Below are positions 7,939 to 34,231 of a stretch of 37,939 nucleotides of DNA, piece after piece. The notes beneath the pieces are model-generated. The model was given only the letters and a program-made list of their open reading frames with translations, searched no databases and had not been told where the DNA came from. The first letter of the stretch is position 1. Every line of letters begins with the position of its first letter. This stretch comes from Acholeplasmataceae bacterium (lineage in GTDB: Bacteria > Bacillota_I > Bacilli_A > ML615J-28 > CAG-698), in contig JAAYBG010000108.1 of the NCBI GenBank assembly GCA_012718985.1, positions 1-37,939 of the forward strand, in the 5' to 3' direction. Made by a program: the position numbers and the translations under genes.

Positions 7939-7952
7939 AGTATAATTCCTTC

Positions 7953-8489
7953 TTAAAAATTAGGGGGACTTGTCACCCATATAATTTTCGCAATCTTATT
8001 TGTTGCATTTTTAATAAAATGGTTTTTATCAGTAGTAAAATAGAATGTTTCTCCTTTATGACAAACAAGGCTCTTTCCACCAATGATAATCATAATTTCA
8101 CCCTCTAAAACATATCCAAATTCTTGTCCTTCATGGGGCATATCAATGGTAGTTTGACTATTAGCTAATAACTTAAAGAGAATTGGTTCCATTTGATTCT
8201 TTTGGCTGTTTGGAACTAACCAAGTAATCGTATGGTCCTTTTCTTCCTTAACAATATAGTCTTCATCAGTAAAGACTATTTTTTCATCTTCATCATTATC
8301 GCTGAAAAATTCTTTGAGATTTGTTCCTAGTGCGACCAAAATATCCGTTAATGTACTAATAGAAGGACTTGTTAAATCATTTTCAATCTGCGATATATAT
8401 CCTTTTGTTAGCTCACAACGATCAGCAAGTTCTTCTTGTGTGAGTTGACACAAGACACGTAACCTTTTTATCTTTATTCCGATATTCAT
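7953..8489 (-). CDS. XRE-family regulator with C-terminal cupin domain, likely repressor of potABCD
   Basis: DNA-binding regulator of 178 residues. It has an N-terminal XRE helix-turn-helix (about 4-60: L-T-Q-E-E-L-A-D-R then K-G-Y-I-S-Q-I-E-N) and a C-terminal cupin (about 105-178: M-P-H-E-G-Q-E-F-G-Y-V-L-E-G-E) that presumably binds a small ligand. This PuuR-like architecture is common upstream of polyamine genes in Bacillota. A GTG at 8501 could add four residues, but it sits inside the GTGAGG ribosome binding site and the ATG at 8489 has ideal spacing, so the latter is chosen. It is the first gene of the pot operon, and palindromes just upstream suggest autoregulation. Polyamine as the cupin ligand is inference. 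Confidence 0.9.
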   Translation of the reverse strand: MNIGIKIKRLRVLCQLTQEELADRCELTKGYISQIENDLTSPSISTLTDILVALGTNLKEFFSDNDEDEKIVFTDEDYIVKEEKDHTITWLVPNSQKNQMEPILFKLLANSQTTIDMPHEGQEFGYVLEGEIMIIIGGKSLVCHKGETFYFTTDKNHFIKNATNKIAKIIWVTSPPNF

Positions 8490-8511
8490 TTTATTCCTCA
8501 CTTTCTATTAA

Positions 8512-8527
8512 ACATTAAGTTTAATGT
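8512..8527 (-). promoter_or_regulatory. Promoter-proximal operator-like palindrome
   Basis: Inverted repeat ACATTAA-GT-TTAATGT between the pot promoter and the regulator start codon. It shares the core TTAAGTTTAAT with the second palindrome at 8540-8554, where the core lies in the opposite orientation. Confidence 0.6.
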
Positions 8528-8539
8528 GTTTTATATAAT

Positions 8540-8554
8540 TAAACTTAAAGTTTA
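8540..8554 (-). promoter_or_regulatory. Second operator-like palindrome of the pot operon
   Basis: Inverted repeat TAAACTT-A-AAGTTTA placed about 15-30 nt downstream of the expected transcription start. With the palindrome at 8512-8527 it makes a pair suited to repression by the XRE-cupin protein encoded immediately downstream. Confidence 0.6.
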
Positions 8555-8577
8555 GTAAATGTAAACAACGCAGATAT

Positions 8578-8606
8578 ATTATATGATTTACCCTATGCTT
8601 TGTCAA
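8578..8606 (-). promoter_or_regulatory. Consensus sigma-A promoter of the XRE-potABCD operon
   Basis: Minus strand: TTGACA (8601-8606), 17-nt spacer, TATAAT (8578-8583). Both hexamers match consensus perfectly, which fits a strong promoter held in check by a repressor. Confidence 0.88.
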
Positions 8607-8619
8607 TACTTTTTCCTAT

Positions 8620-8650
8620 AAAAAAATCTCCCTTTTATGGGGAGATTTTT
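8620..8650 (-). terminator. Rho-independent terminator after the PII-like gene
   Basis: Stem AAAATCTCCC / GGGAGATTTT with a short A/T loop and a run of T on the minus strand. It overlaps the stop codon of the PII-like gene and separates it from the pot promoter. Confidence 0.85.
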
Positions 8651-8954
8651 ATACATTGATACCAATGACTTGATCTAATTTAATTGAGAAAGTAATTGCA
8701 TGGGCTTCCGTTTGAACTCCAGCATTTTGAACAATTGCTTTCATAATATTTTCTTTCAAATTTTCTGGAACGATAATCATCACCATTTCTTTTTCTGGTT
8801 GAATGGTAATCCCAAAAAACTTTGCAACTTCCTTACCGGCAGAACCTCTTGCTTTGAGTATTGTTCCTCCTTTAGCACCTGCCTTACGAGCGATAGTCAT
8901 AATATCACCAGCATATCCATGATGGCAAATAGCAAATATCATATAATTTTCCAT
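8649..8954 (-). CDS. PII-like signalling protein
   Basis: A 101-residue protein of the PII/PII-like family, small trimeric sensors that bind nucleotides and control partner proteins, often transporters. Visible are the first beta strand plus helix (Y-M-I-F-A-I-C-H-H-G-Y-A-G-D-I-M-T-I-A-R), the conserved G-A-K-G-G-T-I-L-K-A-R-G turn (about 25-36), and a later strand E-K-E-M-V-M-I-I-V-P. The canonical GlnB T-loop with its modifiable Tyr is not recognisable, so this is not a classical GlnB/GlnK. A strong AGGAGG precedes the ATG. It lies 10 nt downstream of another PII-like gene and the DUF1538 gene, so the membrane protein is its likely partner (inference). Confidence 0.82.
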   Translation of the reverse strand: MENYMIFAICHHGYAGDIMTIARKAGAKGGTILKARGSAGKEVAKFFGITIQPEKEMVMIIVPENLKENIMKAIVQNAGVQTEAHAITFSIKLDQVIGINV

Positions 8955-8964
8955 TGTTTTCCTC

Positions 8965-9309
8965 CTAACACTCTCTTCCTAATAAGATTTGTAGCGCTTT
9001 ACTGCCACCGATACAATCAAGATCTACAACACATGCAATTCCCTTACCTTGCTTGTTTAATTCTAATTTGCCTTGCAATTGATTAAGGGCTTCCTCGACA
9101 TTGTCTTCCTCAACAAACGACAGTACAACATCTTTTTCCAAACTACTCAATCCTAGCAGATGTAAAATTTCTTGCTCAGCAGTGCCTTCTCCTAACATAA
9201 TTAATTGATAATAAACTCCGCATTTACTTAAAATTTCTTCTACTTTTTCTCCTTTATCGCGATCAATTATCGTGATAATTAATTTCATACCTTGTAATTC
9301 ATCAGTCAT
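8965..9309 (-). CDS. Second PII-like protein associated with DUF1538
   Basis: A 114-residue soluble protein with a beta-alpha-beta, beta-alpha-beta pattern as in PII proteins: K-L-I-I-T-I-I-D-R-D-K-G-E-K-V-E-E-I-L then V-V-L-S-F-V-E-E-D-N-V-E-E-A-L. A terminal segment G-K-G-I-A-C-V-V-D-L-D-C-I-G-G resembles the C-terminus of PII-like domains. It is divergent from the neighbouring PII-like protein. The start is taken at ATG 9309, preceded by AAGGTGG at good spacing; an upstream GTG at 9318 is within that site. It overlaps the DUF1538 gene by 8 nt, so translation is probably coupled. Family membership rests on fold pattern and gene context, so it is less certain than its neighbour. Confidence 0.7.
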   Translation of the reverse strand: MTDELQGMKLIITIIDRDKGEKVEEILSKCGVYYQLIMLGEGTAEQEILHLLGLSSLEKDVVLSFVEEDNVEEALNQLQGKLELNKQGKGIACVVDLDCIGGSKALQILLGREC

Positions 9310-10825
9310 TTTTACCACCTTCTTGAACTAGTTCTTTATTTTTCTTGGTTTTCTTTAGTTTAATTATCTTTATATCCTCTTCAACCCTATCTTGTTTTAT
9401 CTTTCCTAATTTAATCTTATAGATTAAACCCAGCAATTGAATAACAATTAGGGGTGTCATGGAAACAAAGGCAACAATTCCAAATGCATTTAAGAGAACT
9501 TTTGAACTGTCAACACTTGTTCCTACACCAATAGCAAAGGGAAAAATAAAGGTTGCTGTCATCGGTCCAGATGCAACACTGCCTGAATCAAAGGCAATCG
9601 CGGTAAAAATTTTCGGAACAAAAAACATTAAAGTTAGAGCAATACCATATCCTGGAATCACAAACCACCAAATAGAAATATCATAGATAATTCTAAACAT
9701 AGCCATAGCAACAGAAATACCAACCCCAATTACTAAGCTAAATAACATCAATCGTTTAGATATTGTTCCACTGGTGATTTCTTCTACTTGGTCGTTTAAT
9801 ACATATACTGCTGGTTCCGCTAGTACAGTAAAGAATCCAATCAATCCACCAAGAGGAATTAATATCCAATTCGACTCCAATGCTCCAAGTTTTTTTCCAA
9901 AAATAACTCCTATTGGCATAAAGCCATAGTTTACAGCCGATAAAAACAAAACCAAACCTACATAGGTAATCAATAATCCAATTATTATTTTTTTAATTTT
10001 TTTTGCACTTAATTTTAAATATAACAACTGATATCCAGCAAAGAAAATAGATATTGGTGCAAGCGCTATTCCTACATCTTTGATGTTAGTAACAAGAATT
10101 TCAAGAAAATTCCCCTGTTCTTCAGTTCCGGCGTTGATTGTTGTCTCTCCCAAGAATAATCCTAGGAATAAAACAGCAAGAATCGGACCAATAGCACATA
10201 AAGCAACCATTCCGAAACTATCTTCCTCAGAACCACTATCGCCACGTGCTATAGCAATACCTGAACCCAAGGCTAGAATAAACGGAACGATAATCGGACC
10301 AGTCGTTACTCCACCAGAATCCAATGAAACTGGAACAAATTCTGGAGCCACAAAAAGTGCAATCAGAAAAATCAATGAATACGAAATGATTAACAAATAC
10401 GACAATTTTATTTGAAAGACAATTCTCAACGCTGAAATTACTAAGAAAATACCCACTCCTAATGCAATTGGGAGTATCAAATAATATTTGTTTTTTAATC
10501 CATCAAATTGTTCTGCTAGAACCACCAAGTCTGGTTCAGCAATCGTAATCATAAATCCTATTATAAAAATAACCACTATCATTAATGTTAAATTACGTTT
10601 TTTGGTTATATGCGTTCCAACTTCTCTTCCTATAGTGAGCAAGGATGAATCAGATCCCATGTTGAATAAACCCATTCCGATAGCTAACATAATTGCACTA
10701 ATAATAAAATGAATCATATCCTCTTTTGCAACATCAAGAAAAAAAGAAATGATAATTACTAATAAAGTTATTGGTAATACTGATATTGCAGATTCTTTTA
10801 GTTTACCAATAATTATTTTTTTCAT
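9302..10825 (-). CDS. DUF1538 family multi-spanning membrane protein (putative transporter)
   Basis: A very hydrophobic 507-residue protein with roughly a dozen membrane segments and a basic C-terminal tail (about 478-507). It matches the DUF1538 family, whose function is not established. The sequence is a direct internal duplication. A-E-P-D-L-V-V-L (about 96) recurs as A-E-P-A-V-Y-V-L (about 338). L-D-S-G-G-V-T-T-G-P (about 168) recurs as F-D-S-G-S-V-A-S-G-P (about 415). G-M-V-A-L-C-A-I-G-P recurs as G-I-V-A-F-V-S-M-T-P. Such paired D-S-G-x-V-x-x-G-P re-entrant-like segments suggest a two-fold pseudosymmetric transporter. Two PII-like genes follow directly, which suggests allosteric control. 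GGAGGG precedes the ATG. Substrate unknown. Confidence 0.85.
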   Translation of the reverse strand: MKKIIIGKLKESAISVLPITLLVIIISFFLDVAKEDMIHFIISAIMLAIGMGLFNMGSDSSLLTIGREVGTHITKKRNLTLMIVVIFIIGFMITIAEPDLVVLAEQFDGLKNKYYLILPIALGVGIFLVISALRIVFQIKLSYLLIISYSLIFLIALFVAPEFVPVSLDSGGVTTGPIIVPFILALGSGIAIARGDSGSEEDSFGMVALCAIGPILAVLFLGLFLGETTINAGTEEQGNFLEILVTNIKDVGIALAPISIFFAGYQLLYLKLSAKKIKKIIIGLLITYVGLVLFLSAVNYGFMPIGVIFGKKLGALESNWILIPLGGLIGFFTVLAEPAVYVLNDQVEEITSGTISKRLMLFSLVIGVGISVAMAMFRIIYDISIWWFVIPGYGIALTLMFFVPKIFTAIAFDSGSVASGPMTATFIFPFAIGVGTSVDSSKVLLNAFGIVAFVSMTPLIVIQLLGLIYKIKLGKIKQDRVEEDIKIIKLKKTKKNKELVQEGGKND

Positions 10826-22355: not shown

Positions 22356-24482
22356 TTATTTTTTTCGTAACGCTTTATGTGCTAGCATAATATTCGTCAT
22401 TCGCTTTTGACTGGCAAAGAAAATCATACCGATTTCGCCTCTGATACCGATAATCACACCCTCACCAAATTTATCGTGAATCACCAAATCTCCTGTCCTA
22501 TAAGGACCAGATTTTTTTTGCTCTTCCTCGGATGGTTTTTTCATCAGATATTCTTGTTCTAAATCATGAAATGGATTTTCTTCTTCGAACATTTGTTTTT
22601 TTATCTTCTTTGTCCCTGCAAATTCAAGTAAAAATCTCGATGGTTGATTATGAAACCAAGTTCCATAGAGCATTCTATTTTTTGTTGCCAGTAAATACAA
22701 TTTACTTTTGGCCCTTGTGAAGGCAACATAGGCAATTCGGCGCTCTTCTTCCATTTCAAAATTATTAACAATCCGTCCTTCATTAGGAAAAATATTTTCC
22801 TCAAGAGCTACAACAAAAACATATTCGAATTCTAACCCCTTAACAGAATGAATTGTTGATAAGGTAACCCCATTTTTATTTTCCTTTTGATTTTGTAGGT
22901 ATTCATCTGACAAAATCGTATAATCAAAGGCTTCACGCAATCGTTCACTTCTTGAGGTTCCGTCTGAATTTGATTCGATTTGATAAAGAACACTCTTGAA
23001 TTCTTGCAAGTTATCATTTCGTTCTTCAAAATTTTCTGTTTCTTCCTTCAAATACTCTTTGTATCCAATTTTTTCAATCAGTTCATCGAATAATTCATTC
23101 AGATTAACCTTATCTATTTTCTCTTGAAAATACTTAATCATCGTCATAAAATCTAGCAAGGTTTGATATTTGCTCTTATTTAGAATGACATTGGAAGCTT
23201 TCAATGCTTCAAACAACTGAACTTTATCCTCTTTACATATCGCTTCGATTTTACCAATAGTTACTTCGCCAATTCCACGTGTCGGGACATTAATAATTCT
23301 TTTAAAACTATGAATATCATTATCGTTTATGATTAATTTTAAATAAGCGATAATATCTTTCACTTCACGTCTTTTTAAATAGGAAACTCCACCAAAAACA
23401 CGATAGGGTATTCCCATTTTAATAAAACCAAGTTCAAAATTTCTTAATATAACAGAATTACGATAAAGTACTGCAAAATCAGTCCAGGGAGTAGTTGTCG
23501 TTTTTAAACTGCGAACAGCATCGAGAACATAATTTACTTCATCCTTTTCCGATTCTGTTTGCACGATAATCACATCATCTTCTTTTCCTTTATTACGAGA
23601 AAATAATTCCTTTGGTTCACGGTTTTCATTGTTTTTAATCAATTTATTACAGCCATCAAGAATTGTTTGTGTTGAACGATAATTTTCTGTTAGGTAAAAA
23701 ATTTGATGTTCAGGAAAATCGCGTTTGAATTGCGACATATTTTCATAGTTAGTTCCGCGAAAACTATAAATACTTTGATCATCATCACCGACAACAAATA
23801 AATTTCTACTCTTTTCTGTTAGCATCTTGATAATCTCATATTGAATAAGACTGGTATCTTGAAATTCATCGCATAATACATAGTGAAATCGATCTTGGTA
23901 TTTTTGCAGTGTTTGAGGAAAATTGGTAAATATTTCCTTTGTTTTCAACAATAAATCCTCAAAATCCAATAAATTTAAACTCTTCATTTTATCTTCGTAG
24001 AGTTTAAAAATTTTGTTCTCCAAAGGATTATCAATCTTTTCTATACCAAAACACTTATTATAATTGATTGCTTTTTGGATATGCTTTGCTTTTCTCTTTT
24101 CTTCATTGTTTTCTTTTAGAACATCGGTGATAATTTTCAATTGTTCTTCTTCATCAATAATAGAAAAAGTACGACTATATCCTAAAACCGGGATTTCTTT
24201 TCGCAAGATTCTAGCACATAGTGCATGGAATGTACTAATAGTTGCATCATATATTTCCGGTCCAACAAGATTGATTAATCGTTCTCGCATTTCGTTGGTT
24301 GCCTTGTTTGTAAAGGTAATTGCCAGAATATTAGCAGGATTAATCCCTTTTTCCTTTACCATGTAAGCAATACGAAAGGTTAGAGCTCTTGTTTTCCCAC
24401 TACCAGCGCCAGCCGAAACCATGACAGGACCAGAGTATGCTAACACTGTCTTTTTTTGCTCTTCATTCAAATTGCTTAACAT
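22356..24482 (-). CDS. pcrA: ATP-dependent DNA helicase PcrA/UvrD
   Basis: Superfamily 1A 3'-5' helicase that unwinds DNA in repair and removes recombination intermediates and stalled complexes. In the 708 residues the motifs are clear: Q-motif region L-N-E-E-Q, Walker A G-A-G-S-G-K-T, motif Ia T-F-T-N-K-A, motif II D-E-F-Q-D-T-S, motif III G-D-D-D-Q-S-I-Y-S-F-R-G, motif V S-T-I-H-S-V-K-G-L-E-F and motif VI R-R-I-A-Y-V-A-F-T-R-A. The C-terminal G-D-L-V-I-H-D-K-F-G-E-G-V-I segment is the Tudor-like domain that contacts RNA polymerase in PcrA. It begins 18 nt after glnS and closes the operon, rather than sitting next to ligA in the same transcript. Confidence 0.95.
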   Translation of the reverse strand: MLSNLNEEQKKTVLAYSGPVMVSAGAGSGKTRALTFRIAYMVKEKGINPANILAITFTNKATNEMRERLINLVGPEIYDATISTFHALCARILRKEIPVLGYSRTFSIIDEEEQLKIITDVLKENNEEKRKAKHIQKAINYNKCFGIEKIDNPLENKIFKLYEDKMKSLNLLDFEDLLLKTKEIFTNFPQTLQKYQDRFHYVLCDEFQDTSLIQYEIIKMLTEKSRNLFVVGDDDQSIYSFRGTNYENMSQFKRDFPEHQIFYLTENYRSTQTILDGCNKLIKNNENREPKELFSRNKGKEDDVIIVQTESEKDEVNYVLDAVRSLKTTTTPWTDFAVLYRNSVILRNFELGFIKMGIPYRVFGGVSYLKRREVKDIIAYLKLIINDNDIHSFKRIINVPTRGIGEVTIGKIEAICKEDKVQLFEALKASNVILNKSKYQTLLDFMTMIKYFQEKIDKVNLNELFDELIEKIGYKEYLKEETENFEERNDNLQEFKSVLYQIESNSDGTSRSERLREAFDYTILSDEYLQNQKENKNGVTLSTIHSVKGLEFEYVFVVALEENIFPNEGRIVNNFEMEEERRIAYVAFTRAKSKLYLLATKNRMLYGTWFHNQPSRFLLEFAGTKKIKKQMFEEENPFHDLEQEYLMKKPSEEEQKKSGPYRTGDLVIHDKFGEGVIIGIRGEIGMIFFASQKRMTNIMLAHKALRKK

Positions 24483-24500
24483 TCATTTCACACTCCATAA

Positions 24501-26138
24501 CTATTTAATCGCTGATTTTAATGATACAATGCGGTTAAAAACTAATTTATTCTTTTTTGTTTCTTTATCAACAACATAATATCCATCTCGCACAAATTGG
24601 AAACGTTCCATAACAGAAAATTGCTTCTTACTTCCTTCAACAAAGCCTTTTTTGATGGTCCAAGAATTTGGATTTAATCGTTCCAAAAAACTACGGTTGT
24701 CTTCAGGATTGTCGATTACTAATGTTTCAAACAAATTGAAGGTAGCTGGTTTTGCTGTTGTTGCTTCAACAAATTGAATCGTTCCATTTGGTTTTCTTTC
24801 ATTAAACCCGCTTCCGCTCTTTGTCCGTGGATCATAGGTACAATGTACTTCAACAATATTTCCATCTTTATCGTAAACTACCTCATTTGCTTTGATAAAA
24901 TAAGCATGGAACAACCTTACTTCTAAACCTAAAGCTAAACGTTTGTAATGTTTATCCGGTTTTTCTAAAACAAAATCGTTTCTATCAATATATAAATTAC
25001 GAGAAAAGGCAATTTGACGGGTTCCTAATTCTTCGTTTTCATTATTATTATTGGCTTCAAGGTATTCTATTTTTCCTTCCTCATAATTAGTAATCACTAT
25101 TTTTAAAGGATCTAAAACAGCCATTAAACGATTCGTTTTTAATTTCAAATCTTCCCGAAGAAAATGTTCAAGCATATCGCCTTCGATTGTTGAGTTGATA
25201 CGAGATAGCCCTGACGCCTTCACAAAATTTTTGATTGATTCTGGAGTATATCCTCTTCTAGCTAGACCAACTAAGGTAGGCATACGGGGATCATCATACC
25301 CTGTTACCTTTTTACTATTTACCAGTTCCCGTAAATATCTCTTGCTCATTACGGTATTGGTAATATTCAAACGTCCAAATTCGATTTGTTGGGGAACATG
25401 GGGCATTTCGCACTTCTCTACAACCCAATCATATAATGGACGATGGTTATCATATTCTAAACTACACAAAGAATGAGTAATCCCCTCAATTGCATCTTGA
25501 ATAGGATGAGCAAAATCATACATTGGATAAATACACCATTTATCTTTAGTACGATGATGACTAATATATAAAATACGATATAAAACAGGATCACGCATAT
25601 TGATATTAGGGCTCGCCATATCAATTTTAGCTCGTAAAACGCGTTCTCCTTCTTGGTATTTTCCCTCTTTCATGTTCTTAAATAATTCTAAGTTTTCTTC
25701 CACACTACGATTACGATAAGGAGATTCGATTCCAGGGGTATTGAAATCCCCCCGGTATTTGCTGGTTTCTTCTGGTGTTAAATCACAGACATAAGCAAGC
25801 CCCTTTTTAATGAGTTTTACTGCCAATTCATAAGTTTCATCAAAATAATCACTACCATACAATACCTTAGCAGGGTGATATCCTAACCATTCGATGTCTT
25901 TTTCAATTGCTTTTACAAATTCAACATCTTCTTTTGCAGGATTGGTATCATCAAAGCGTAAGTTTGTCTTTCCCCCAAAGCTGTTTGCTAATTCAAAATT
26001 GGTAATGATTGCTCGTGCATGTCCAATATGTAAATAGGCATTGGGTTCAGGAGGAAATCTAGTTACTATTGATTTCACTTTTCCACTTTCTAAATCATTA
26101 ATCATAATTGTCTTTATAAAATTCGACATTTCTTCCAT
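24501..26138 (-). CDS. glnS: Glutaminyl-tRNA synthetase
   Basis: Class I aminoacyl-tRNA synthetase that charges tRNA-Gln with glutamine. It has [14 protein letters not shown] (the HIGH motif), [16 protein letters not shown] and V-M-S-K-R (the KMSKS equivalent). Two anticodon-binding beta barrels follow (about 330-545). Length is standard. Candidate starts are GTG 26147, ATG 26138 and ATG 26129; AGGAAGTG fits ATG 26138 best. Many Bacillota instead make Gln-tRNA with the GatCAB amidotransferase, so a dedicated GlnRS is informative about lineage. It follows the B3/B4 gene by 5 nt. Confidence 0.95.
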
Positions 26139-26143
26139 TGTTT

Positions 26144-26803
26144 TCACTTCCTAGTTATTATAATATCTTCTATGTTTTTTGCAGAGGCATACTTTTGATA
26201 AATATCAATAGCGAATTGTTTGTTTTCCTCGTGCATACTTGGACCAAAACAAATAATCATCAACAATATTTTTTTTGTTTCCTTTGTTACCATGGTTCTT
26301 TCTGTATCGCTTGTTGTTGAGCCAAAAGGCCCAATGTCATCTTCATAAACGGGAACATTACTGACATTTAATAGTCCTCGACCAATCCCGTAATATTCAT
26401 CTGTTTCTTTTCCTATTCTTATTGTGATGTCCCCTTTGATTTTTTCATAGTCTAGTACAGCAACCGACCTTTTTGCCTCTATCGACAAAAGATTTCCCGC
26501 ATCAACAACATTATTGATACGATATAAGCTGTTCCCTTTCACTAAACGTCTCAGCAAAGATTCACAAGCTAAACGGTATCGACTGGGATCTTTCCCCAGT
26601 TTTTTATAACCATCTCGAGCTTCTTTGATAAGAGGAATATTCAATACATCCTCTAATGAATATTCCCCCTTGATTTTTTCTTCATAAATTGTAATCATTT
26701 CTGATATTTTCTCACTATCCTCAACTTCAACATCCATCTTCATTGCAATGATAGTGAATGCAGGAATAATATCAGTTATTTCTTTGTTTATGGTAATTAT
26801 CAT
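26144..26803 (-). CDS. Free-standing B3/B4 domain protein, possible tRNA-editing factor
   Basis: A 219-residue soluble protein matching the B3/B4 domain, which forms the editing site of the phenylalanyl-tRNA synthetase beta subunit. Diagnostic segments are [10 protein letters not shown] (about 68-77), [20 protein letters not shown] (about 84-103), and the later [12 protein letters not shown] (about 165-176), corresponding to the ...D-x-x-R-T region of the family. Stand-alone members are widespread but poorly characterised; hydrolysis of mischarged tRNA in trans is plausible. The start codon overlaps the stop of the coiled-coil gene as ATGA, and glnS follows closely, so all three are translationally linked. 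Confidence 0.85.
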
Positions 26804-29800
26804 TCTAGTTTAAACTTCTCTTCCTTTGTTCTTTCTAATTCAGCATTTTTTTCAGAAATTTCTGTCTTTAATTTTTCAATATTCAGTTTCAATTCTTCTT
26901 GCTTATTTTTAAGTTCTTTTATACTTTCTATTAATCTCGTATAATAAAGAACTTTTTCATTATTCCTCAAATTTTCCATTTTCTTCCGTGAAAATTCAAT
27001 CTTTGCAATCAAATCTGACTTTAATATATCCAAATCTTCGAGTTTCGCTCTTAAACGAAGTACTTCTGATTTTTGATCAGGATTATTAGCTAGAGCATCA
27101 ATCTTTTCTGTAACTTCTTGTGTCTGGTTAAGATTATCATGATACTCTTGTGTTAAATCTTCATTATCGCCGGCAATTTTTAAATAATTTACCACTGTTT
27201 CATCGGTCATCCTAATCTGCTTTTCTGCGTTGATGCGTTCTCCGTACTTTAGGTTAACTGTACCTAACAAACTAGTCAAATTATTGCACATGGTATTTTT
27301 TTCTTGGATTTCGTTTTCCAAGCGACGAATACTTTGATCAATATTTTGTTTCTTATCGCTTAAAATTTGTTCTTTGATTTCTCTATTTGTTTCTAATGCT
27401 TTACTAATAACTTGATTATTTTGCCATAAAGCTGTCTGTGTTTGTTGTTGGGCTTGATTTAACTCATTTAGTTGACGAATTAAATCTTCTCTTTCTTCAT
27501 TTTTAACACTATAAGCCTTATCCTTTCCAATTAAATCGCTCTTCATTTCATTCAAATAATAATCGATGATTTCCTTTTCCGATTGATTTAATTGTTCTAC
27601 TCGTTCATCATAGCATTGAACCAGATAATCATAGCGTTCTTTTAAGTCGACCAATTCACCACTTAATTTTTGCAAGCGATCTTCAAATAGTTCTAATTCG
27701 ATTAATGCTTTTCCTCTTTTACTTAAATATGACTCTCGCCCTAGTGAAGTACGATCCGTCTGACCCGCATATTCTTTTTCTATTGTTTCTACTTTTTCTT
27801 TTGCATTCGCTACTTCAATTTTCTTTTGATTAATTTGTTGTTCAACTTGAATAATACTTCGATTAATGAATTTCTTCTCTTCTTCAAATGATTCATTTAA
27901 TTCTTTTTTTATATTGCGGACACGACGAATTTTTCGTTTAAATTCAGGATCAATAATTTTTTCTTCGTTAATATCATTGAATTGTTGGCGAATCAATTGT
28001 AATTGTTGATCTTTTTGATAGATTTCTTGTTCTAGATTATGTATTCTTTGGTACATATCCTGATTTTTATTCATCACATATTTTTGATCATTATCTTCAA
28101 GAATACTGATTTCTCGTTTTTTAATCTGCAATATTTCATCTTTAATTTTCTTTATTTCTGCTTCAACATCGTATTTATCTTCTACTTTAACTTTTTCATC
28201 AAATAATGTCGGTTCTTCTATTACTGGTTTTTGACCAAGAACTTTCAATTCTGAATTTTCCTTTTCCAAAGTAGCAATAAATTCATCCTTAGCAAGCAGT
28301 TTTGCTTTTACATCGTTTAATTCATTGACATTTTCTTCATTAGCTTTCTTCAGTGTCTCCAAGTATGCTTCTAATTCAGAAGAAATATCCTCTCCACTTT
28401 TATCTAAAACAAAAATATCGTTATACTTTATCGATAATAATGTCGCTTTCTTTTGCTTTGCATCATTTAAAGATTCTTGTAATTTTGTTTTTTGTTCGGT
28501 TAATAAATGATTGGTTTTTTCTATTTCCTGTTTTTCTGCTTCTAATTCCGCTATCTTATTCTTAGCTTCCTCATATGAATTCTGTTGAGTGGCAAGTTCT
28601 GTTTCTTTTTCTGCTAATTTACTCGCACTATCTTCTCTTATCTCCTCAATATTTTTAATTAATTCTTGATTTTGGGTTTCTAATTCTACCACTTTTTTTG
28701 CAGTTTCTTCATATAATTTTTTCTGTTCTAGAAGTTCAGCTTCTGTTTGTTCATAATCGTTTTTATCCACTACTTGTGCAACTTGTTCTTTTTTCGTTAA
28801 TTCTTGACGAAGCTCCTCAATAACAAGGTTAGCTTTCTTAAGTTCATCTTTTTGATTGTTTAACTCTTCATTAAGTTCTGTAAATTGCTTATTTAGATCA
28901 TTTGACTTAGATAATAAATCTTCTTTTTCTTTATTGATTGCTGTTAATTTCTTCTCTAAATTTTGCTTTGTTTTTTGCAGTTCTTTTTTTTCTTGAGTGA
29001 TTGCAGTCAATTGTTTCGACAATTTATTGACATTCTTATCCGCTTCGGCAATCATTTCCTTCATTTTTTGATTTTCCTGCATTAGAGAATCTATTTTTCC
29101 ATAAGCATCTTCAAGTTCTTTATTTAACTGATCATCATATGATTCTTCATAATTAACTTCCAATTTAGACATTTTTTCTTTTAGATCCATTTCTTTACTT
29201 TGCGTTTTTTCTGCTTCGCTTTTGATGAATCCTTGGTCTAACAGTTTTTGCGCTTCAATTTTGCGGCGCATTTTTTCTTGAATGCCTAATTTCTCTTGTT
29301 TTTCTTTTTCCACTTCCTCTTGTAATTCTAAATCTTCTTTTATTATTTTTTCCGTTTTTGCTGGTTCTTCTTTTTCCTCAACTAGGAGTTCCTTCTCTTT
29401 TGCTTTTTCTTTCTCCTTAGCTAAACGTTCCTTTTCTTTTGCTTTTTCCTTTTCCTTGGCTAAACGCTCTTTTTCTTTTGCTTTTTCTTTCTCCTTAGCT
29501 AAACGCTCTTTCTCTTTAGCCTTTGCTTTTTCCTTGGCTAACCGTTCTTTCTCTTTTGCCTTTGCTTTTTCCTTAGCTAAGCGTTCTTTCTCTTTTGCCT
29601 TTGCCTTTTCCTTAGCTAAGCGTTCTTTTTCTTTTGCTTTCTCCTTCTCTTTAGCTAAACGTTCTTTTTCCTTTGCTTTTGCTGCATCAGAAAGAACAAC
29701 CTTCTTTTCCTTTAGTTCAGGTTCTTTTTTAGCCTTAATTTCTTCGGTAGTAACTACAGTATTAGGTTTTTCAGTCATGGTCTCACCCTCTTTATTACTG

Positions 29801-29964
29801 ATAATTGTTCGCTCACTAAACAAATAACGTTCTTTAGCATTTTTTTCATTAATTAGTCCTTTTTCGCTTCTTATCTTCAAATACTTTTTCCTGTTCTTTG
29901 AATCTTCGAGCAAGCTTCTTTTTATAATTTCTAGTTTTTCAGATTGGCCCTTGTCCCTAATCAT
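26800..29964 (-). CDS. Giant coiled-coil protein with charged KEK repeats
   Basis: Unrecognised 1054-residue protein, almost entirely charged helix. After a basic N-terminus, residues about 96-199 are eight near-identical 13-residue units K-A-K-E-K-E-R-L-A-K-E-K-(A/E), an alternating-charge pattern of the single-alpha-helix type. Long heptad-like coiled coils follow (about 260-560 and 620-1050), separated by a less regular stretch (about 570-600) with Y-N-D-I-F-V-L-D and E-P-T-L-F-D-E. There is no membrane segment, Walker motif or hinge, so it is not SMC or Rad50. ATG 29964 has AAAGGGGTGA just upstream; an in-frame ATG at 29778 has an equally good AGAGGGTGA. It is flanked upstream by two membrane-protein genes (14 nt gap) and overlaps the B3/B4 gene by 4 nt. 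A structural or scaffold role is inferred. Confidence 0.85.
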   Translation of the reverse strand: MIRDKGQSEKLEIIKRSLLEDSKNRKKYLKIRSEKGLINEKNAKERYLFSERTIISNKEGETMTEKPNTVVTTEEIKAKKEPELKEKKVVLSDAAKAKEKERLAKEKEKAKEKERLAKEKAKAKEKERLAKEKAKAKEKERLAKEKAKAKEKERLAKEKEKAKEKERLAKEKEKAKEKERLAKEKEKAKEKELLVEEKEEPAKTEKIIKEDLELQEEVEKEKQEKLGIQEKMRRKIEAQKLLDQGFIKSEAEKTQSKEMDLKEKMSKLEVNYEESYDDQLNKELEDAYGKIDSLMQENQKMKEMIAEADKNVNKLSKQLTAITQEKKELQKTKQNLEKKLTAINKEKEDLLSKSNDLNKQFTELNEELNNQKDELKKANLVIEELRQELTKKEQVAQVVDKNDYEQTEAELLEQKKLYEETAKKVVELETQNQELIKNIEEIREDSASKLAEKETELATQQNSYEEAKNKIAELEAEKQEIEKTNHLLTEQKTKLQESLNDAKQKKATLLSIKYNDIFVLDKSGEDISSELEAYLETLKKANEENVNELNDVKAKLLAKDEFIATLEKENSELKVLGQKPVIEEPTLFDEKVKVEDKYDVEAEIKKIKDEILQIKKREISILEDNDQKYVMNKNQDMYQRIHNLEQEIYQKDQQLQLIRQQFNDINEEKIIDPEFKRKIRRVRNIKKELNESFEEEKKFINRSIIQVEQQINQKKIEVANAKEKVETIEKEYAGQTDRTSLGRESYLSKRGKALIELELFEDRLQKLSGELVDLKERYDYLVQCYDERVEQLNQSEKEIIDYYLNEMKSDLIGKDKAYSVKNEEREDLIRQLNELNQAQQQTQTALWQNNQVISKALETNREIKEQILSDKKQNIDQSIRRLENEIQEKNTMCNNLTSLLGTVNLKYGERINAEKQIRMTDETVVNYLKIAGDNEDLTQEYHDNLNQTQEVTEKIDALANNPDQKSEVLRLRAKLEDLDILKSDLIAKIEFSRKKMENLRNNEKVLYYTRLIESIKELKNKQEELKLNIEKLKTEISEKNAELERTKEEKFKLE
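29368..29679 (-). repeat. Eight 39-bp in-frame tandem repeats in the coiled-coil gene
   Basis: Eight consecutive 39-bp units encode K-A-K-E-K-E-R-L-A-K-E-K-(A/E). Units differ mainly at synonymous third positions and at the last residue (Ala or Glu); the last unit is degenerate (E-L-L-V-E-E). The length is a multiple of three, so gain or loss of units keeps the frame. Confidence 0.85.
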
Positions 29965-29977
29965 TAGCCTCACCCCT

Positions 29978-30919
29978 TTAGAAAATAAATGTTTTAACTA
30001 CCTCATAAATCACATAAACTACCACTGTTAACGTACCAGCAATGCTGAGTATTATCAATAAGGTTTTGAATAATAAAAGCCAGGTTTTTTTCTTTTTGAA
30101 ATGGGAGCTTTTATCAATTATTGTTTGGGAAATGGTATCCAAAGTCTGATTACCTATCTTTCCTTCACAGACCAAATTTATAGCATAGGGAGCAAATGTA
30201 TAATTTTTCTTTAAGACATTTGTCATATAATATGCTTTGGCTTTTTTAATTTTTTTCTCATATTCCTTGTCTAATATTCTTGTATTTCTTTCAAGTATAT
30301 GTTGAGCACTATTCGTAATCTTTTTGAAATCTTGAATATTTACATTATAATATCTTGCATAGATTAAAGAAATTATGATTATATATAGACTTGAGTCCAT
30401 AACTAATTTAATCCATGGTTTTTTTGAAAAAAGAGTGTAAAGAAGATTTTCCATTTGAACAAAAAAATTACCACCAAATGCCTTTACCAATAATCCGTTT
30501 GTTAAGCCATGAATAAAAACGAGAAGAATCAACATCAACCACAATAATAATATCATTCCCCATGAAAAAGGTTTGATTTTAATATCTGCAGAAGTTTCAA
30601 TGACACTACTACCTTCAATGATTTTCTTTTCTTGAGTTTTCTTCACATCTTTTTCCCACAACAAAAATGCCTTCTTTGCTATTCTTCGCCTTCGATAGCG
30701 AGAATAAGTAGCATTTCTAATGAGATGCCCAAAAGCTTGATAATTCTTTTTATATTTTATACGATAATCCTCAATACTACTCACAATATACGGCGAATTC
30801 AAGGGGTCATAAAGAAATGGATTCCCTTTTAAAAATTCAATTTTGTCTAAATCGACAACATCTGTATCTTCACCCGACCATAAGGGATTATATAATTTTA
30901 CTTGTGGATTATCTTTCAT
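29978..30919 (-). CDS. Hypothetical three-pass membrane protein
   Basis: Unrecognised 313-residue protein. Residues 1-115 are soluble and contain a basic cluster R-Y-R-R-R-R-I-A-K-K (about 75-84), so the N-terminus is probably cytoplasmic. Membrane segments lie at about 118-145, 170-190 and 278-305. Between the second and third is a helical, Lys-rich domain (about 195-277, with I-L-D-K-E-Y-E-K-K-I-K-K-A-K). The C-terminus is hydrophobic up to the last residue. AGGAG precedes the ATG. It sits 13 nt after the CvpA-like gene and 14 nt before the coiled-coil gene, and is likely to act with both. Confidence 0.8.
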   Translation of the reverse strand: MKDNPQVKLYNPLWSGEDTDVVDLDKIEFLKGNPFLYDPLNSPYIVSSIEDYRIKYKKNYQAFGHLIRNATYSRYRRRRIAKKAFLLWEKDVKKTQEKKIIEGSSVIETSADIKIKPFSWGMILLLWLMLILLVFIHGLTNGLLVKAFGGNFFVQMENLLYTLFSKKPWIKLVMDSSLYIIIISLIYARYYNVNIQDFKKITNSAQHILERNTRILDKEYEKKIKKAKAYYMTNVLKKNYTFAPYAINLVCEGKIGNQTLDTISQTIIDKSSHFKKKKTWLLLFKTLLIILSIAGTLTVVVYVIYEVVKTFIF

Positions 30920-30932
30920 TTGTAATCTCCTG

Positions 30933-32672
30933 TTAATTCGTCAGATACACCTTTATTGCTGAATCGATATCCGTTGAATTTAAAATATCATCAATTAAGT
31001 TTTCCGCCAATAGATTCTTATCTAATAGGTTAAATAAAAACCCTGTATCTTTTGTAAATATCTTTTCTAAAACACTATATCTTGCTTTATCTGTGATAAT
31101 TCCTAAATTGGACAAATCTTTTATCCTATTTAAACCGTTCTTGATGTCTTTAATAGTAACAACCTCTTCGTTTGTTTTTAGCACATATTCAAAAGCAAAA
31201 TATTCAAAATATAAATCATGCCCTGACAACTCTTGTGAACTTAATGTATCACAAAAATAACTCGATAAAAGTATTTCCTCTTCCCAACTATGATTTTGAA
31301 AAAAATCACGATAACTTTGCCCTAAAACTAAACGAACAGGATATGAGTTTTTGGAATCAATCAAAAATATCTCTTCTTTATACTTGCTATGAACAGAAAA
31401 AGCTTCCTTCAACGTTTTAAACACTCTTTGTTCGTATTCACTTTTTTCTAATAAGTTCATATTTATGTATTCTTTTAAATATTCTTCAACAAAATCATCT
31501 ATTGATGATGGATTTTGAAATAGTTGATTGAAAGTATCAACATATTCATTTATAGGATAATCATATAAAGTCTTTTTTGTTAATCGATATAGTTCGTTAT
31601 GATTATTGAAATAAAATGACATAGAATTGTAAACTGCAAGAAAACTTGCTCGATCACTTTCCTTTACAAAGCAATCCAATATCTTTGTTTTATTGTTTTC
31701 TAACAACTCAAAAATTTCATTAAAAGTATAAGAACTAAAATCATTCTCTAATATTTCACCGATAAAATAAACATACCCTCTTTTCGCAAGTAGGTATTCA
31801 TATTTTTCAAAAAAAACATCATACAACGAATTTTCTTTTTCATCTAATAATACATAGTAAAATAAGGTTCTCTTTTCCCCCATCTCCATTAATGTTAACA
31901 CATAATCATCATCAATCTTAGCATTCTCAATTCTAGTTTGAGATGCCGGTGATAAATTAGGTATCATTTCATTACTGAAATAGGTGTTCAACTCTGCAAA
32001 TTCATTTGCTAGGCTATCTAATTCTCGATATCCTGCTAGGGCCTTTGACCCATTCAATTCCTCAAAAGCATGTGTCCACGTTCTATATTTTTGTACATTA
32101 TTATTTTGATATTGATTGAATAAAGAAATATCAAATACTTTCGTACTTGTTTTTGCCATTACATTTGCCAGTGGTTTTGATATACTAGTAATCATTGTTG
32201 TTCCTAAAACAAATAAAAGGAGCGTAAGATAAATATAGGTGTTCATAACGGATGAAACAGCCCCTAAAACACGCGATAAAACACTTGTCTTTTTTAGAAT
32301 AATTTTTTCTTTGCTTGGTGAAAACAGTTTTAGAATAAGATAAATTAGTAAATATATTAAAAGGTAAAGAATAATTCCAACAAAAATACAGAAAATAACA
32401 TTTTCATACTTAGCAATAACAAAGTGCTTTTCTAACCACAAGAAAATTTTCTCTTTTGATTGCCTAATAAAATTAATTTTCAATAGAAAATGAACAACAT
32501 GCTCTAATGAAAAATGGAGAATGAAAAATGGTAATGTTAGATTAATAGTTTTTTTCAATTGACGACCAAAACCATAGTAGCTTCCAAATAGTAAGCCTGT
32601 TATGAAAACAATGATTGCTAGTATGTCAAAATTGAATGTCGCAAAAGACTCCATTTTTTCCACCGAGAACAT
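30933..32672 (-). CDS. CvpA-like membrane protein with large C-terminal domain
   Basis: A 579-residue protein. The first 165 residues look like the four-helix CvpA (colicin V production) fold: hydrophobic segments at about 17-36, 43-63, 89-117 and 140-163, with G-F-G-R-Q-L-K-K between the first two and S-K-E-K-I-I-L-K-K between the last two. The basic loops place these on the inside, so the large remaining domain (about 165-579) should be outside. That domain is mostly helical with many Tyr, Phe, Asn and acidic residues, and no family is recognised. Typical CvpA proteins are only about 160-220 residues. It opens the six-gene operon and has a clear promoter. The CvpA relation is a pattern-level call. 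Confidence 0.7.
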   Translation of the reverse strand: MFSVEKMESFATFNFDILAIIVFITGLLFGSYYGFGRQLKKTINLTLPFFILHFSLEHVVHFLLKINFIRQSKEKIFLWLEKHFVIAKYENVIFCIFVGIILYLLIYLLIYLILKLFSPSKEKIILKKTSVLSRVLGAVSSVMNTYIYLTLLLFVLGTTMITSISKPLANVMAKTSTKVFDISLFNQYQNNNVQKYRTWTHAFEELNGSKALAGYRELDSLANEFAELNTYFSNEMIPNLSPASQTRIENAKIDDDYVLTLMEMGEKRTLFYYVLLDEKENSLYDVFFEKYEYLLAKRGYVYFIGEILENDFSSYTFNEIFELLENNKTKILDCFVKESDRASFLAVYNSMSFYFNNHNELYRLTKKTLYDYPINEYVDTFNQLFQNPSSIDDFVEEYLKEYINMNLLEKSEYEQRVFKTLKEAFSVHSKYKEEIFLIDSKNSYPVRLVLGQSYRDFFQNHSWEEEILLSSYFCDTLSSQELSGHDLYFEYFAFEYVLKTNEEVVTIKDIKNGLNRIKDLSNLGIITDKARYSVLEKIFTKDTGFLFNLLDKNLLAENLIDDILNSTDIDSAIKVYLTN

Positions 32673-32696: not shown

Positions 32697-32725
32697 ATTA
32701 TATCATTTATAATCTTTTTTTACAA
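32697..32725 (-). promoter_or_regulatory. Promoter of the six-gene coiled-coil/glnS/pcrA operon
   Basis: Minus strand TTGTAA (32720-32725), 17-nt spacer, TATAAT (32697-32702), about 25 nt before the first start codon. Confidence 0.72.
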
Positions 32726-32751: not shown

Positions 32752-32780
32752 AAAAAAGCTGAATTTTTAAATCCAGCTTT
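32752..32780 (-). terminator. Rho-independent terminator after the BspA/BIG2 lipoprotein gene
   Basis: Stem AAAGCTGGATTT / AAATTCAGCTTT on the minus strand (one G-U pair) followed by seven T. The G-U pair is stable only in the minus-strand transcript, supporting the orientation. Confidence 0.85.
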
Positions 32781-32796
32781 TGCTTTTTTCTTTTTT

Positions 32797-34167
32797 TTAG
32801 TCTAATTCGTAAATCTGTTCATCATAAACTGACCAAACAGCATTGTTTTTATACATTTCAGCGCTTCCTTTTGGTACATAAATCTTAACATCTTCTGATA
32901 ATCTGAATTTTGTAACTGAAGTGTTAATGCAATTTGGATTAACAACGTTCAATATCAATTTTTCTAATCCTGAACATCTATCAAAAGAATTTGAACTTGC
33001 AACAAGTAAAACTGGGCACGCCGCTATTGTTATTTTAACGGTTGCTTTTTTTGTTGGGTCAGCTGCTAACGAAGCAGTTATTGTTGCAGAGCCATTTTTA
33101 ATTGCTGTTACAGTTCCTTTATCGCGGTCAACTGTAACTACATCGGGATTATTCACTGTCCAATAAACCAATTTTCCACTAGCTTCAGTTAAGCGAACAA
33201 TATCACCAACATACATATTTCTTGCATTAATAATTTCAATACCATCTGTTGATGTTGAAGCGATCATTTCTTGACCATCACCGTACATCTCACTATCATC
33301 AACATTGATGGTTATTGTTTTTAATCCTCTACAACTAGCAAAAGATAATCCTGTATTTCCACCAATTGTTTTAACACTGTTAGGAATATTCACTGATTGT
33401 AATTTCTTACATTGATAGAAAGCATAATCTTCGATTGTTTCAACAGTATAAGGAATAGTAATTTTTTGAACTTTACTAGTCGCAATACTAATATTTAAAA
33501 ATCTAATATATTTGTAAAAAGCATAACTCTTAATTACTTTTACAGGTGCTCCATCAAGTTCAGCAGGTATTTCAACATTTTTATCATTACCAATATATTG
33601 AACAATCGTGATATAGTCACCATTGACTTTATCATAAACATATTTATATTTAAATTTTTCATCTTTAGTGATTCGAATCGTTCTTTGAATCCATGTATCA
33701 TTAGGTTTATTGCCTAATTCATCTTCTTCATAAGAAGTAATATTTACTGGCGCAGTAAAATTCCATACGTTCATTTCCCCTGATAAAAAGTAAACATCAA
33801 ATTCTTTCGCCTCTGGGCCATCAGGAGTAACCAATGTTATTTTCACATGAGCGCTGGCGTATTTTTCCCATTTCTTATTAGTGGTAACATCGCTTTGTAG
33901 CGTGTATTTAAAGGAATCTGTTTTTAAAGACTCAATTCCATCAAAATATGTTGTCTTACCATCTTCATCTGTGTTTTCCTTGATAAATTTTGGATATGCT
34001 ACGCTTGATGTTGAGTAAAATGCACGGGCAACTGCCTCTAAGTCTTTGTTATTTACTGCCTCAACATAAGCATCCCACAAATCTTTGGCTTCTACTTCTT
34101 CACTACAACCAATTGAAAAAGTTAAAGTAAAAACTACAGCGAATAATAAGAATAATATTTTTTTCAT
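32797..34167 (-). CDS. Surface lipoprotein with NTF2-like, leucine-rich (BspA-type) and BIG2 segments
   Basis: A 456-residue lipoprotein with lipobox S-I-G-C (Cys21). Residues about 28-140 (D-L-W-D-A-Y-V-E-A-V-N-N-K-D) read like an NTF2/SnoaL-type fold. Residues about 180-285 are BspA-type leucine-rich repeats, for example K-V-I-K-S-Y-A-F-Y-K and V-E-T-I-E-D-Y-A-F-Y-Q-C. A BIG2 domain then intervenes (about 310-375: Y-W-T-V-N-N-P-D-V-V-T-V ... G-T-V-T-A-I-K-N-G-S-A-T-I-T-A). The repeat pattern then resumes and ends in a typical cap (I-Y-V-P-K-G-S-A-E-M-Y-K). ATG 34167 is chosen because GGAGG lies 8 nt upstream; the earlier ATG at 34182 overlaps that site. A binding or adhesion role at the surface is inferred. 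Confidence 0.85.
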   Translation of the reverse strand: MKKILFLLFAVVFTLTFSIGCSEEVEAKDLWDAYVEAVNNKDLEAVARAFYSTSSVAYPKFIKENTDEDGKTTYFDGIESLKTDSFKYTLQSDVTTNKKWEKYASAHVKITLVTPDGPEAKEFDVYFLSGEMNVWNFTAPVNITSYEEDELGNKPNDTWIQRTIRITKDEKFKYKYVYDKVNGDYITIVQYIGNDKNVEIPAELDGAPVKVIKSYAFYKYIRFLNISIATSKVQKITIPYTVETIEDYAFYQCKKLQSVNIPNSVKTIGGNTGLSFASCRGLKTITINVDDSEMYGDGQEMIASTSTDGIEIINARNMYVGDIVRLTEASGKLVYWTVNNPDVVTVDRDKGTVTAIKNGSATITASLAADPTKKATVKITIAACPVLLVASSNSFDRCSGLEKLILNVVNPNCINTSVTKFRLSEDVKIYVPKGSAEMYKNNAVWSVYDEQIYELD

Positions 34168-34231
34168 TTTTAATTCCTCCATATGTTTTTTGGATTAAAG
34201 ATTATCTTTTATTATTTGATTACTATACGTA

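What the first reader, a model, noticed from the sequence alone, without database searches (positions are those of the whole stretch)
26800..32672. CvpA-like protein, second membrane protein and giant coiled-coil protein form a candidate envelope scaffold module
Three consecutive genes of no recognised function share one promoter and short gaps of 13-14 nt. One has a CvpA-like four-helix head with a predicted external domain of about 415 residues, one is a three-pass protein with cytoplasmic helical domains, and one is a roughly 1050-residue soluble coiled coil. A membrane pair encoded with a cytosolic filament-like protein suggests a shape, division or attachment apparatus, analogous in layout but not in sequence to mollicute cytoskeletal genes. 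Layout and topology are read from sequence; function is inference.
Basis: partly seen in the sequence, partly recalled or inferred. Interest (0 to 1): 0.65.

Follow-up and report, generated by a model that had tools for sequence, protein, structure and literature searches.

The report
Conserved CvpA-type membrane pair with coiled coil
In a little-known group of mycoplasma-related bacteria, most of them uncultured and many apparently without a cell wall, two membrane proteins of unknown function are always encoded side by side, and in this lineage a long rod-like protein follows them; this looks like an uncharacterised cell-envelope complex, but what it does is not known.

Summary
P1 (30933-32672, 579 aa) has a CvpA/Colicin_V four-helix head and an all-alpha ~400-residue outer domain. 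P2 (29978-30919) is a three-pass protein with no Pfam, NCBIfam or PDB match. P3 (ATG 29964 to 26800, 1054 aa) is a soluble coiled coil. The six-gene run behind the promoter also holds B3/4, glnS and pcrA, so the trio is not a closed operon.

Comparative data change the picture. P1-P2 is the core: adjacent in all 40 loci measured (gap -38 to +37 nt), in families f1, f2, f13 (Izemoplasmataceae) and f8 (probably Haloplasmataceae), and duplicated as a pair at a second locus in f8. P3 holds a variable third slot: a long coiled coil in f1/f2, a short Lys-rich protein in f13, nothing in f8. The window's genus lacks MraY, transpeptidase, SEDS and MreB but keeps FtsZ. The module also occurs in relatives that have wall genes, so it is neither wall synthesis nor a wall-less speciality. 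No fold or profile search gives a function.

Best reading: a membrane complex built around P2, P1 facing outward, P3 docking inside. Physical complex plausible; shape or division role unproven.

The parts
30933..32672 (-). P1: CvpA-headed membrane protein with large outer domain, 579 aa
   Evidence: ORF; PF02674 in 20/21 homologues; AlphaFold2 model pLDDT 81.5; conserved neighbours
32178..32642 (-). P1 CvpA/Colicin_V four-helix head (about residues 11-165)
   Evidence: Pfam match residues 15-165; hydropathy in 21 homologues
30936..32123 (-). P1 all-alpha outer domain (residues 184-579)
   Evidence: model pLDDT mostly 85-95; no PDB fold match; f1-only ectodomain profile finds f8 copy A at 4e-14
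29978..30919 (-). P2: three-pass membrane protein, 313 aa, new family
   Evidence: A1/A5 alignments; model pLDDT 78; 41 genomes with E<1e-12
30647..30823 (-). P2 conserved cytoplasmic N-terminal motif NPFLYx..SIEDFxI..KK..FGxxIRN..KRxxIxKKxFxxWxKD (residues 33-91)
   Evidence: columns with P34 invariant and N33, F35, W88 at least 90% in 24 sequences
30065..30355 (-). P2 long cytoplasmic helices between TM2 and TM3 (residues 189-285)
   Evidence: AlphaFold2 helices 168-234 and 254-312
26800..29964 (-). P3: soluble coiled-coil protein, 1054 aa from ATG 29964
   Evidence: ORF and SD; heptad periodicity; profile hits only generic coiled coils
29368..29680 (-). P3 KEKAKAKERLAKE-type 13-aa repeat, 8 copies, likely single alpha-helix
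   Evidence: TRF period 39, 8.0 copies, 86% matches
32697..32725 (-). promoter-like site (TTGTAA-17-TATAAT, extended -10) upstream of P1
   Evidence: consensus only
32754..32781 (-). terminator-like hairpin between the lipoprotein gene and P1
   Evidence: 12 pairs and T run
26144..26803 (-). B3/4-domain protein, same transcription run (4-nt overlap with P3)
   Evidence: PF03483 5.6e-17
24501..26147 (-). glutaminyl/glutamyl-tRNA synthetase, same run
   Evidence: PF00749 2.9e-104
22356..24482 (-). PcrA/UvrD-type helicase, end of the run
   Evidence: position and conserved order; family named from sequence, not scanned
32797..34182 (-). lipoprotein with LRR_5 and Big_2, upstream neighbour, own unit
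   Evidence: PF13306 3.9e-13, PF02368 6.3e-9; present upstream of P1 in about half of f1 loci

Best explanation
P1 and P2 form an envelope membrane complex, with P2 as hub. P1 sits in the membrane by a CvpA-type four-helix head and presents an all-alpha domain outside. P2 crosses three times and sends a conserved N-terminal module and a pair of long helices into the cytosol. In this family and its sister the cytosolic side is extended by P3, a long coiled coil docking on P2, giving a scaffold from outside the membrane into the cytosol. Shown: gene content, conservation, domain make-up, predicted structures, pair duplication. Inferred: topology. Not shown: any physical contact, P3 polymerisation, or a role in shape, division or attachment.
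For: P1-P2 are neighbours in all 40 loci measured, gaps -38 to +37 nt with many translational overlaps, in four families. In f8 the pair occurs twice per genome, once at the glnS locus and once at an unrelated locus beside a class A PBP, so the pair travels as a unit independent of the housekeeping neighbours. P2 kept its partner P3 in two genera that lost P1 (L083, L086) and kept P1 in f8, which has no P3: P2 is the common element. P3-slot proteins follow P2 at a median of 11 nt in 31 loci. P3 is soluble and heptad-periodic. P1, P2 and P3 evolve about 5-7 times faster than flanking glnS/tsaD (mean distance 2.0-2.5 vs 0.33-0.40), as is common for envelope structural proteins (general knowledge).
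Against: No solved-structure match for P1 or P2 by sequence or fold. The residual mirror-tree test is not specific: P1-P2, P1-P3 and P2-P3 give r 0.43-0.46, but P2-B3/4 gives 0.61 and B3/4-rimI 0.68. P3 lies in a conserved housekeeping run, so its link may be positional. Presence does not track wall genes or MreB consistently. P1's outer domain is lost in at least seven relatives (L082).
Confidence: 0.4

Rival explanations
1. P1-P2 is a small transporter, channel or lipid-handling complex (CvpA heads have been likened to solute exporters), and P3 or the other third-slot proteins are regulators or unrelated passengers.
For: PF02674 is grouped by Pfam in the LysE transporter clan, and EHEC cvpA mutants are hypersensitive to deoxycholate, read as export (PMC6705877). 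In f8 the pair exists without any third gene. Weak DUF2207_C similarity of P2 points only to a membrane hairpin.
Against: The outer domain of about 400 residues and the long cytosolic helices of P2 are more than a small transporter needs. No transporter fold was found.
Confidence: 0.27
2. P3 is a bystander: the gene order around tsaD-glnS-pcrA is frozen in this clade, and P3 merely shares a strong housekeeping transcript.
For: The whole neighbourhood is conserved from tsaE to pcrA. P3 overlaps B3/4 by 4 nt and the run continues into glnS and pcrA. P3 is missing in f8 and replaced in f13. Mirror-tree signal is unspecific.
Against: Other genes (lipoprotein, GroEL, Lit) come and go between tsaD and P1, while nothing enters between P1, P2 and the third slot. 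P3 stays with P2 where P1 is lost.
Confidence: 0.23
3. The pair is a surface-protein or lipoprotein assembly aid: P1's outer domain handles secreted neighbours such as the LRR/Big_2 lipoprotein.
For: Secreted or lipoprotein-related neighbours: LRR/Big_2 lipoprotein in f1, a secreted 630-aa protein in f13 and Lit transacylase in f8 copy A, a class A PBP beside f8 copy B.
Against: The neighbours differ in every family and are missing in several f1 genera; the window's lipoprotein has its own terminator.
Confidence: 0.1

Closest known systems
CvpA / Colicin_V family (PF02674), e.g. E. coli CvpA, B. subtilis YshB
   Same: Four-helix N-terminal head of P1; 20 of 21 homologues match the Pfam model
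   Different: P1 adds an outer all-alpha domain of about 400 residues and is tied to P2; most f1 genomes also keep a separate classic CvpA of about 250 aa, at G000:C65 in the window's genome
MarP (Rv3671c), mycobacterial acid-resistance membrane protease
   Same: Four N-terminal transmembrane helices followed by a large domain outside the membrane (PMC4992679); that the MarP helices are CvpA-like is from memory
   Different: MarP's outer domain is a chymotrypsin-fold protease; P1's is all-alpha with no protease match
DUF2207_C (PF20990), predicted membrane protein C-terminal domain
   Same: Six of 19 P2 homologues align weakly over the same two-helix stretch, best 5e-6
   Different: All below the curated cut-off (33 bits), the window P2 does not match; kinship unproven
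Mollicute attachment-organelle and cytoskeletal coiled-coil proteins
   Same: Layout only: membrane proteins plus a long cytosolic coiled coil in wall-less or wall-poor relatives
   Different: No sequence family shared; P3 matches only generic coiled coils such as kinesin, SMC and vimentin

Membership tests
CvpA / Colicin_V (PF02674) | Profile match to the Pfam model | tested here: met
   20 of 21 P1 homologues at E<=0.01, best 1.6e-11; window copy 3e-4, 21.2 bits against cut-off 29.3; G002 orthologue 29.8 bits
[quoted passage not shown]
   Four segments in 18 of 21 homologues by hydropathy (five in two, three in the window copy, where TM2 scores below threshold); helices 15-65, 85-116, 131-156 in the model
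CvpA / Colicin_V (PF02674) | Role in colicin V production or bile-salt resistance | not testable with these tools
   Phenotype known only for proteobacterial CvpA (PMC6705877)
MarP-like membrane protease | Chymotrypsin-fold outer domain | tested here: not met
   Outer domain all helical, no protease family or fold match
DUF2207_C (PF20990) | Profile match above the curated cut-off | tested here: not met
   Best 26.8 bits against 33 in one relative; window P2 no match
SMC | ATPase head domains at both ends of the coiled coil | tested here: not met
   TIGR02168 only 20.9 bits against 567 over the coiled-coil part; no Pfam domain
Mollicute attachment or cytoskeletal apparatus | Homology to known organelle proteins, or polar or filamentous localisation | tested here: inconclusive
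   No homology found in Pfam, NCBIfam or PDB; localisation not testable

The most novel reading that the evidence does not exclude
P1-P2-P3 is an envelope-spanning skeleton that needs neither peptidoglycan nor MreB: P3 forms cytosolic rods or filaments anchored by P2 and coupled through P1 to the outside, giving FtsZ-only, wall-less free-living bacteria mechanical order.
Probability: 0.15. Interest if true: 0.8.

Novelty: new variant of a known kind. Interest (0 to 1): 0.5.

Why it matters
Izemoplasma, Haloplasma and their uncultured relatives sit between walled Bacilli and mycoplasmas, and how they organise an envelope after losing wall and MreB is open. A membrane pair kept across them, through repeated wall loss, with an exchangeable cytosolic partner, is a concrete candidate. 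It is testable in a cultured organism: Xianfuyuplasma coldseepsis zrk13 carries P1 and P2.

Tried and rejected
P1 and P2 models against the PDB: no match with E<=0.001, only generic long-helix and solenoid proteins. PDB sequence profile searches: nothing for P1 or P2, generic coiled coils for P3. Genetic code 4 for the window: the three frames do not need it; P1 and P2 are unchanged and P3 gains only one residue at its terminal TGA. Tie to wall loss: rejected, because families with and without SEDS, transpeptidase and MraY both carry the module. P3 as a substitute for MreB: f1 and f2 lack true MreB and have P3, while the f8 and f13 genomes tested have MreB and no P3, but this is two clades only and G013 has both, so it is only suggestive. 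f2 giant CvpA-headed proteins as P1-P2-P3 fusions: rejected, they sit at another locus and the ectodomain profile does not find them. Mirror-tree test: inconclusive. Literature searches for CvpA with coiled coils or in Mollicutes found nothing on this module.

Full report
What is there. All three genes are on the minus strand. P1 spans 30933-32672 (579 aa), P2 29978-30919 (313 aa) and P3 26800-29964. P3 starts at ATG 29964, behind AAAGGGGTGAGG; the listed GTG at 29973 lies within this ribosome-binding site, so P3 has 1054 residues and the P2-P3 gap is 13 nt, as the P1-P2 gap. A 12-pair terminator-like hairpin and an extended -10 promoter-like site lie between the upstream lipoprotein gene and P1. 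P3 overlaps the B3/4 gene by 4 nt, B3/4 overlaps glnS by 4 nt, and the next clear terminator-like site on this strand is after pcrA, so the likely transcript holds six genes, three of them housekeeping. Promoter counts in the region are no higher than in shuffles (79 against 70), so the promoter is a consensus match, not evidence.

P1. The window copy matches PF02674 at 3e-4, below the curated cut-off, but 20 of 21 homologues match, best 1.6e-11, so the CvpA head is real. Charges around the helices put both termini outside, and the remaining 414 residues are acidic. AlphaFold2 with a nine-sequence alignment gives an all-alpha outer domain (residues 184-579, pLDDT mostly 85-95) and no solved structure resembles it. 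A profile from the outer domains of family f1 alone, head removed, finds the f8 copy-A proteins (best 4e-14) and one f13 protein (1.2e-4), above shuffled and reversed controls (best 0.55), but not f8 copy B. In six f1 relatives P1 is just the head of about 175 aa, in L082 about 200 aa. P1 is a paralogue: a separate classic CvpA of about 250 aa occurs elsewhere in most f1 genomes, in the window's own at G000:C65, beside a CCA-adding/poly(A) polymerase-like gene (L091).

P2. No member reaches a Pfam or NCBIfam cut-off. Six of 19 members show weak DUF2207_C similarity over a shared stretch (best 26.8 bits against 33). Conserved are NPF near residue 34, SIED-type residues, a Trp near 88 and a Tyr at 231. 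The model (pLDDT 78) shows a small beta-hairpin module, a cytosolic helix, TM1, a short re-entrant or amphipathic helix, then two very long helices carrying TM2 and TM3. No fold match.

P3. No hydrophobic segment and 2% Pro+Gly. Hydrophobic periodicity at 3.5 residues has z=10 for residues 241-1057, against 4 for GlnRS; an f1 orthologue gives 14 and a more distant one 4.5. An 8-copy 13-residue KEK-rich repeat, likely a single alpha-helix, precedes it. Profile matches are generic coiled coils.

Conservation. In 20 relatives the order tsaE-tsaB-rimI-tsaD-(lipoprotein)-P1-P2-P3-B3/4-glnS-pcrA is kept wherever the contig extends. Named relatives are environmental or bioreactor MAGs labelled Bacilli, Acholeplasmatales, Tenericutes or Mollicutes. 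P1 and P2 also occur in two genera of sister family f2 with a coiled-coil gene after them, in f13 and in f8. One f13 contig of 1,958,905 bp has exactly the published genome size of Xianfuyuplasma coldseepsis zrk13, a cultured Izemoplasma without a wall by electron microscopy (PMC8397711). In a class-wide sample of 395 genomes P2 is confident (E<1e-12) in 41, all in these four families; ten further hits are marginal.

Which parts belong together. P1 and P2 are adjacent in all 40 loci measured, with gaps from -38 to +37 nt. f8 carries the pair twice, once by B3/4-glnS and once beside a class A PBP, the best evidence that the pair is a functional unit rather than a frozen neighbourhood. The third slot varies: long coiled coil in f1 and f2 (two of these, in L082 and L085, are matched by position and composition only), a Lys-rich protein of 154-348 aa with a conserved C-terminal domain in f13, nothing in f8. 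P1 was lost in two f1 genomes that keep P2 and P3 (L083, L086), and was not found beside P2 in two f13 genomes (L132, L133). P2 is therefore the common element.

Cell biology of the carriers. The window's genome (95.6% complete) and two genus mates have no SEDS protein, transpeptidase or MraY match. The only MreB_Mbl match in the window's genome is a weak one in a frame of about 600 aa, as expected for DnaK (inference), while FtsZ is clear. About ten f1 relatives keep wall genes and still carry the module. So the module is not part of wall synthesis and not a speciality of wall-less cells. Published analyses also describe repeated wall loss in this part of Bacilli (PMC7301438).

Judgement. Well supported (about 0.9): a conserved, uncharacterised P1-P2 membrane pair. 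Moderately supported (about 0.4): a complex in which P2 joins an outward P1 and a cytosolic P3. Weak: shape, division or attachment; this is inference from layout. Rivals are a transport-type complex with P3 as passenger or regulator, and P3 as a bystander in a housekeeping transcript. The mirror-tree test does not separate them because controls correlate as strongly.

Noticed in passing
L074-L081 (family f2), e.g. L080:3-6281 and 6573-9827: f2 genera without the P1-P2 pair carry one or two giant CvpA-headed or CvpA-like proteins (845 to over 2,100 aa), often in tandem and next to a MurA/AroA-like gene, not at the glnS locus.
   Followed up: partly
L118, L120, L122, L134, L093 (family f8 copy B): The second P1-P2 pair stands next to a penicillin-binding-protein-sized gene (class A, Transgly + Transpeptidase, in L118, the one scanned) transcribed in the opposite orientation; copy A stands beside the lipoprotein transacylase Lit.
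   Followed up: partly
L125:10768-11814 and nine f13 homologues: The third-slot protein of Izemoplasmataceae is mostly charged and disordered-looking but ends in a conserved ~65-aa domain (KKYxxVEDFIxYLNxHYLxIDxIAxxVLDDExFFGW); no Pfam or NCBIfam match.
   Followed up: partly
family f1 genomes G000-G027: Wall genes (SEDS, transpeptidase, MraY) are present in about ten and absent in about half of the genomes of one family, suggesting repeated wall loss inside it.
   Followed up: partly
L021:4583-8262 (G002): P3 is broken into two frames (220 and 960 aa) near the KEK repeat; assembly error, frameshift or real split cannot be told.
   Followed up: no
L030:3790-5247, L031:6921-8336: In genus g7 P2 has an acidic N-terminal extension of about 150 residues.
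   Followed up: no
L084, L085 and f8 copy A loci: A GroEL-like gene lies between tsaD and P1 in two f2 genomes (tsaD seen in L084 only) and upstream of P1 in f8, while in f1 a lipoprotein gene often takes that place.
   Followed up: no
window:32797-34182: Lipoprotein with a BspA-type LRR segment interrupted by a Big_2 domain upstream of P1; a variable neighbour in f1.
   Followed up: no
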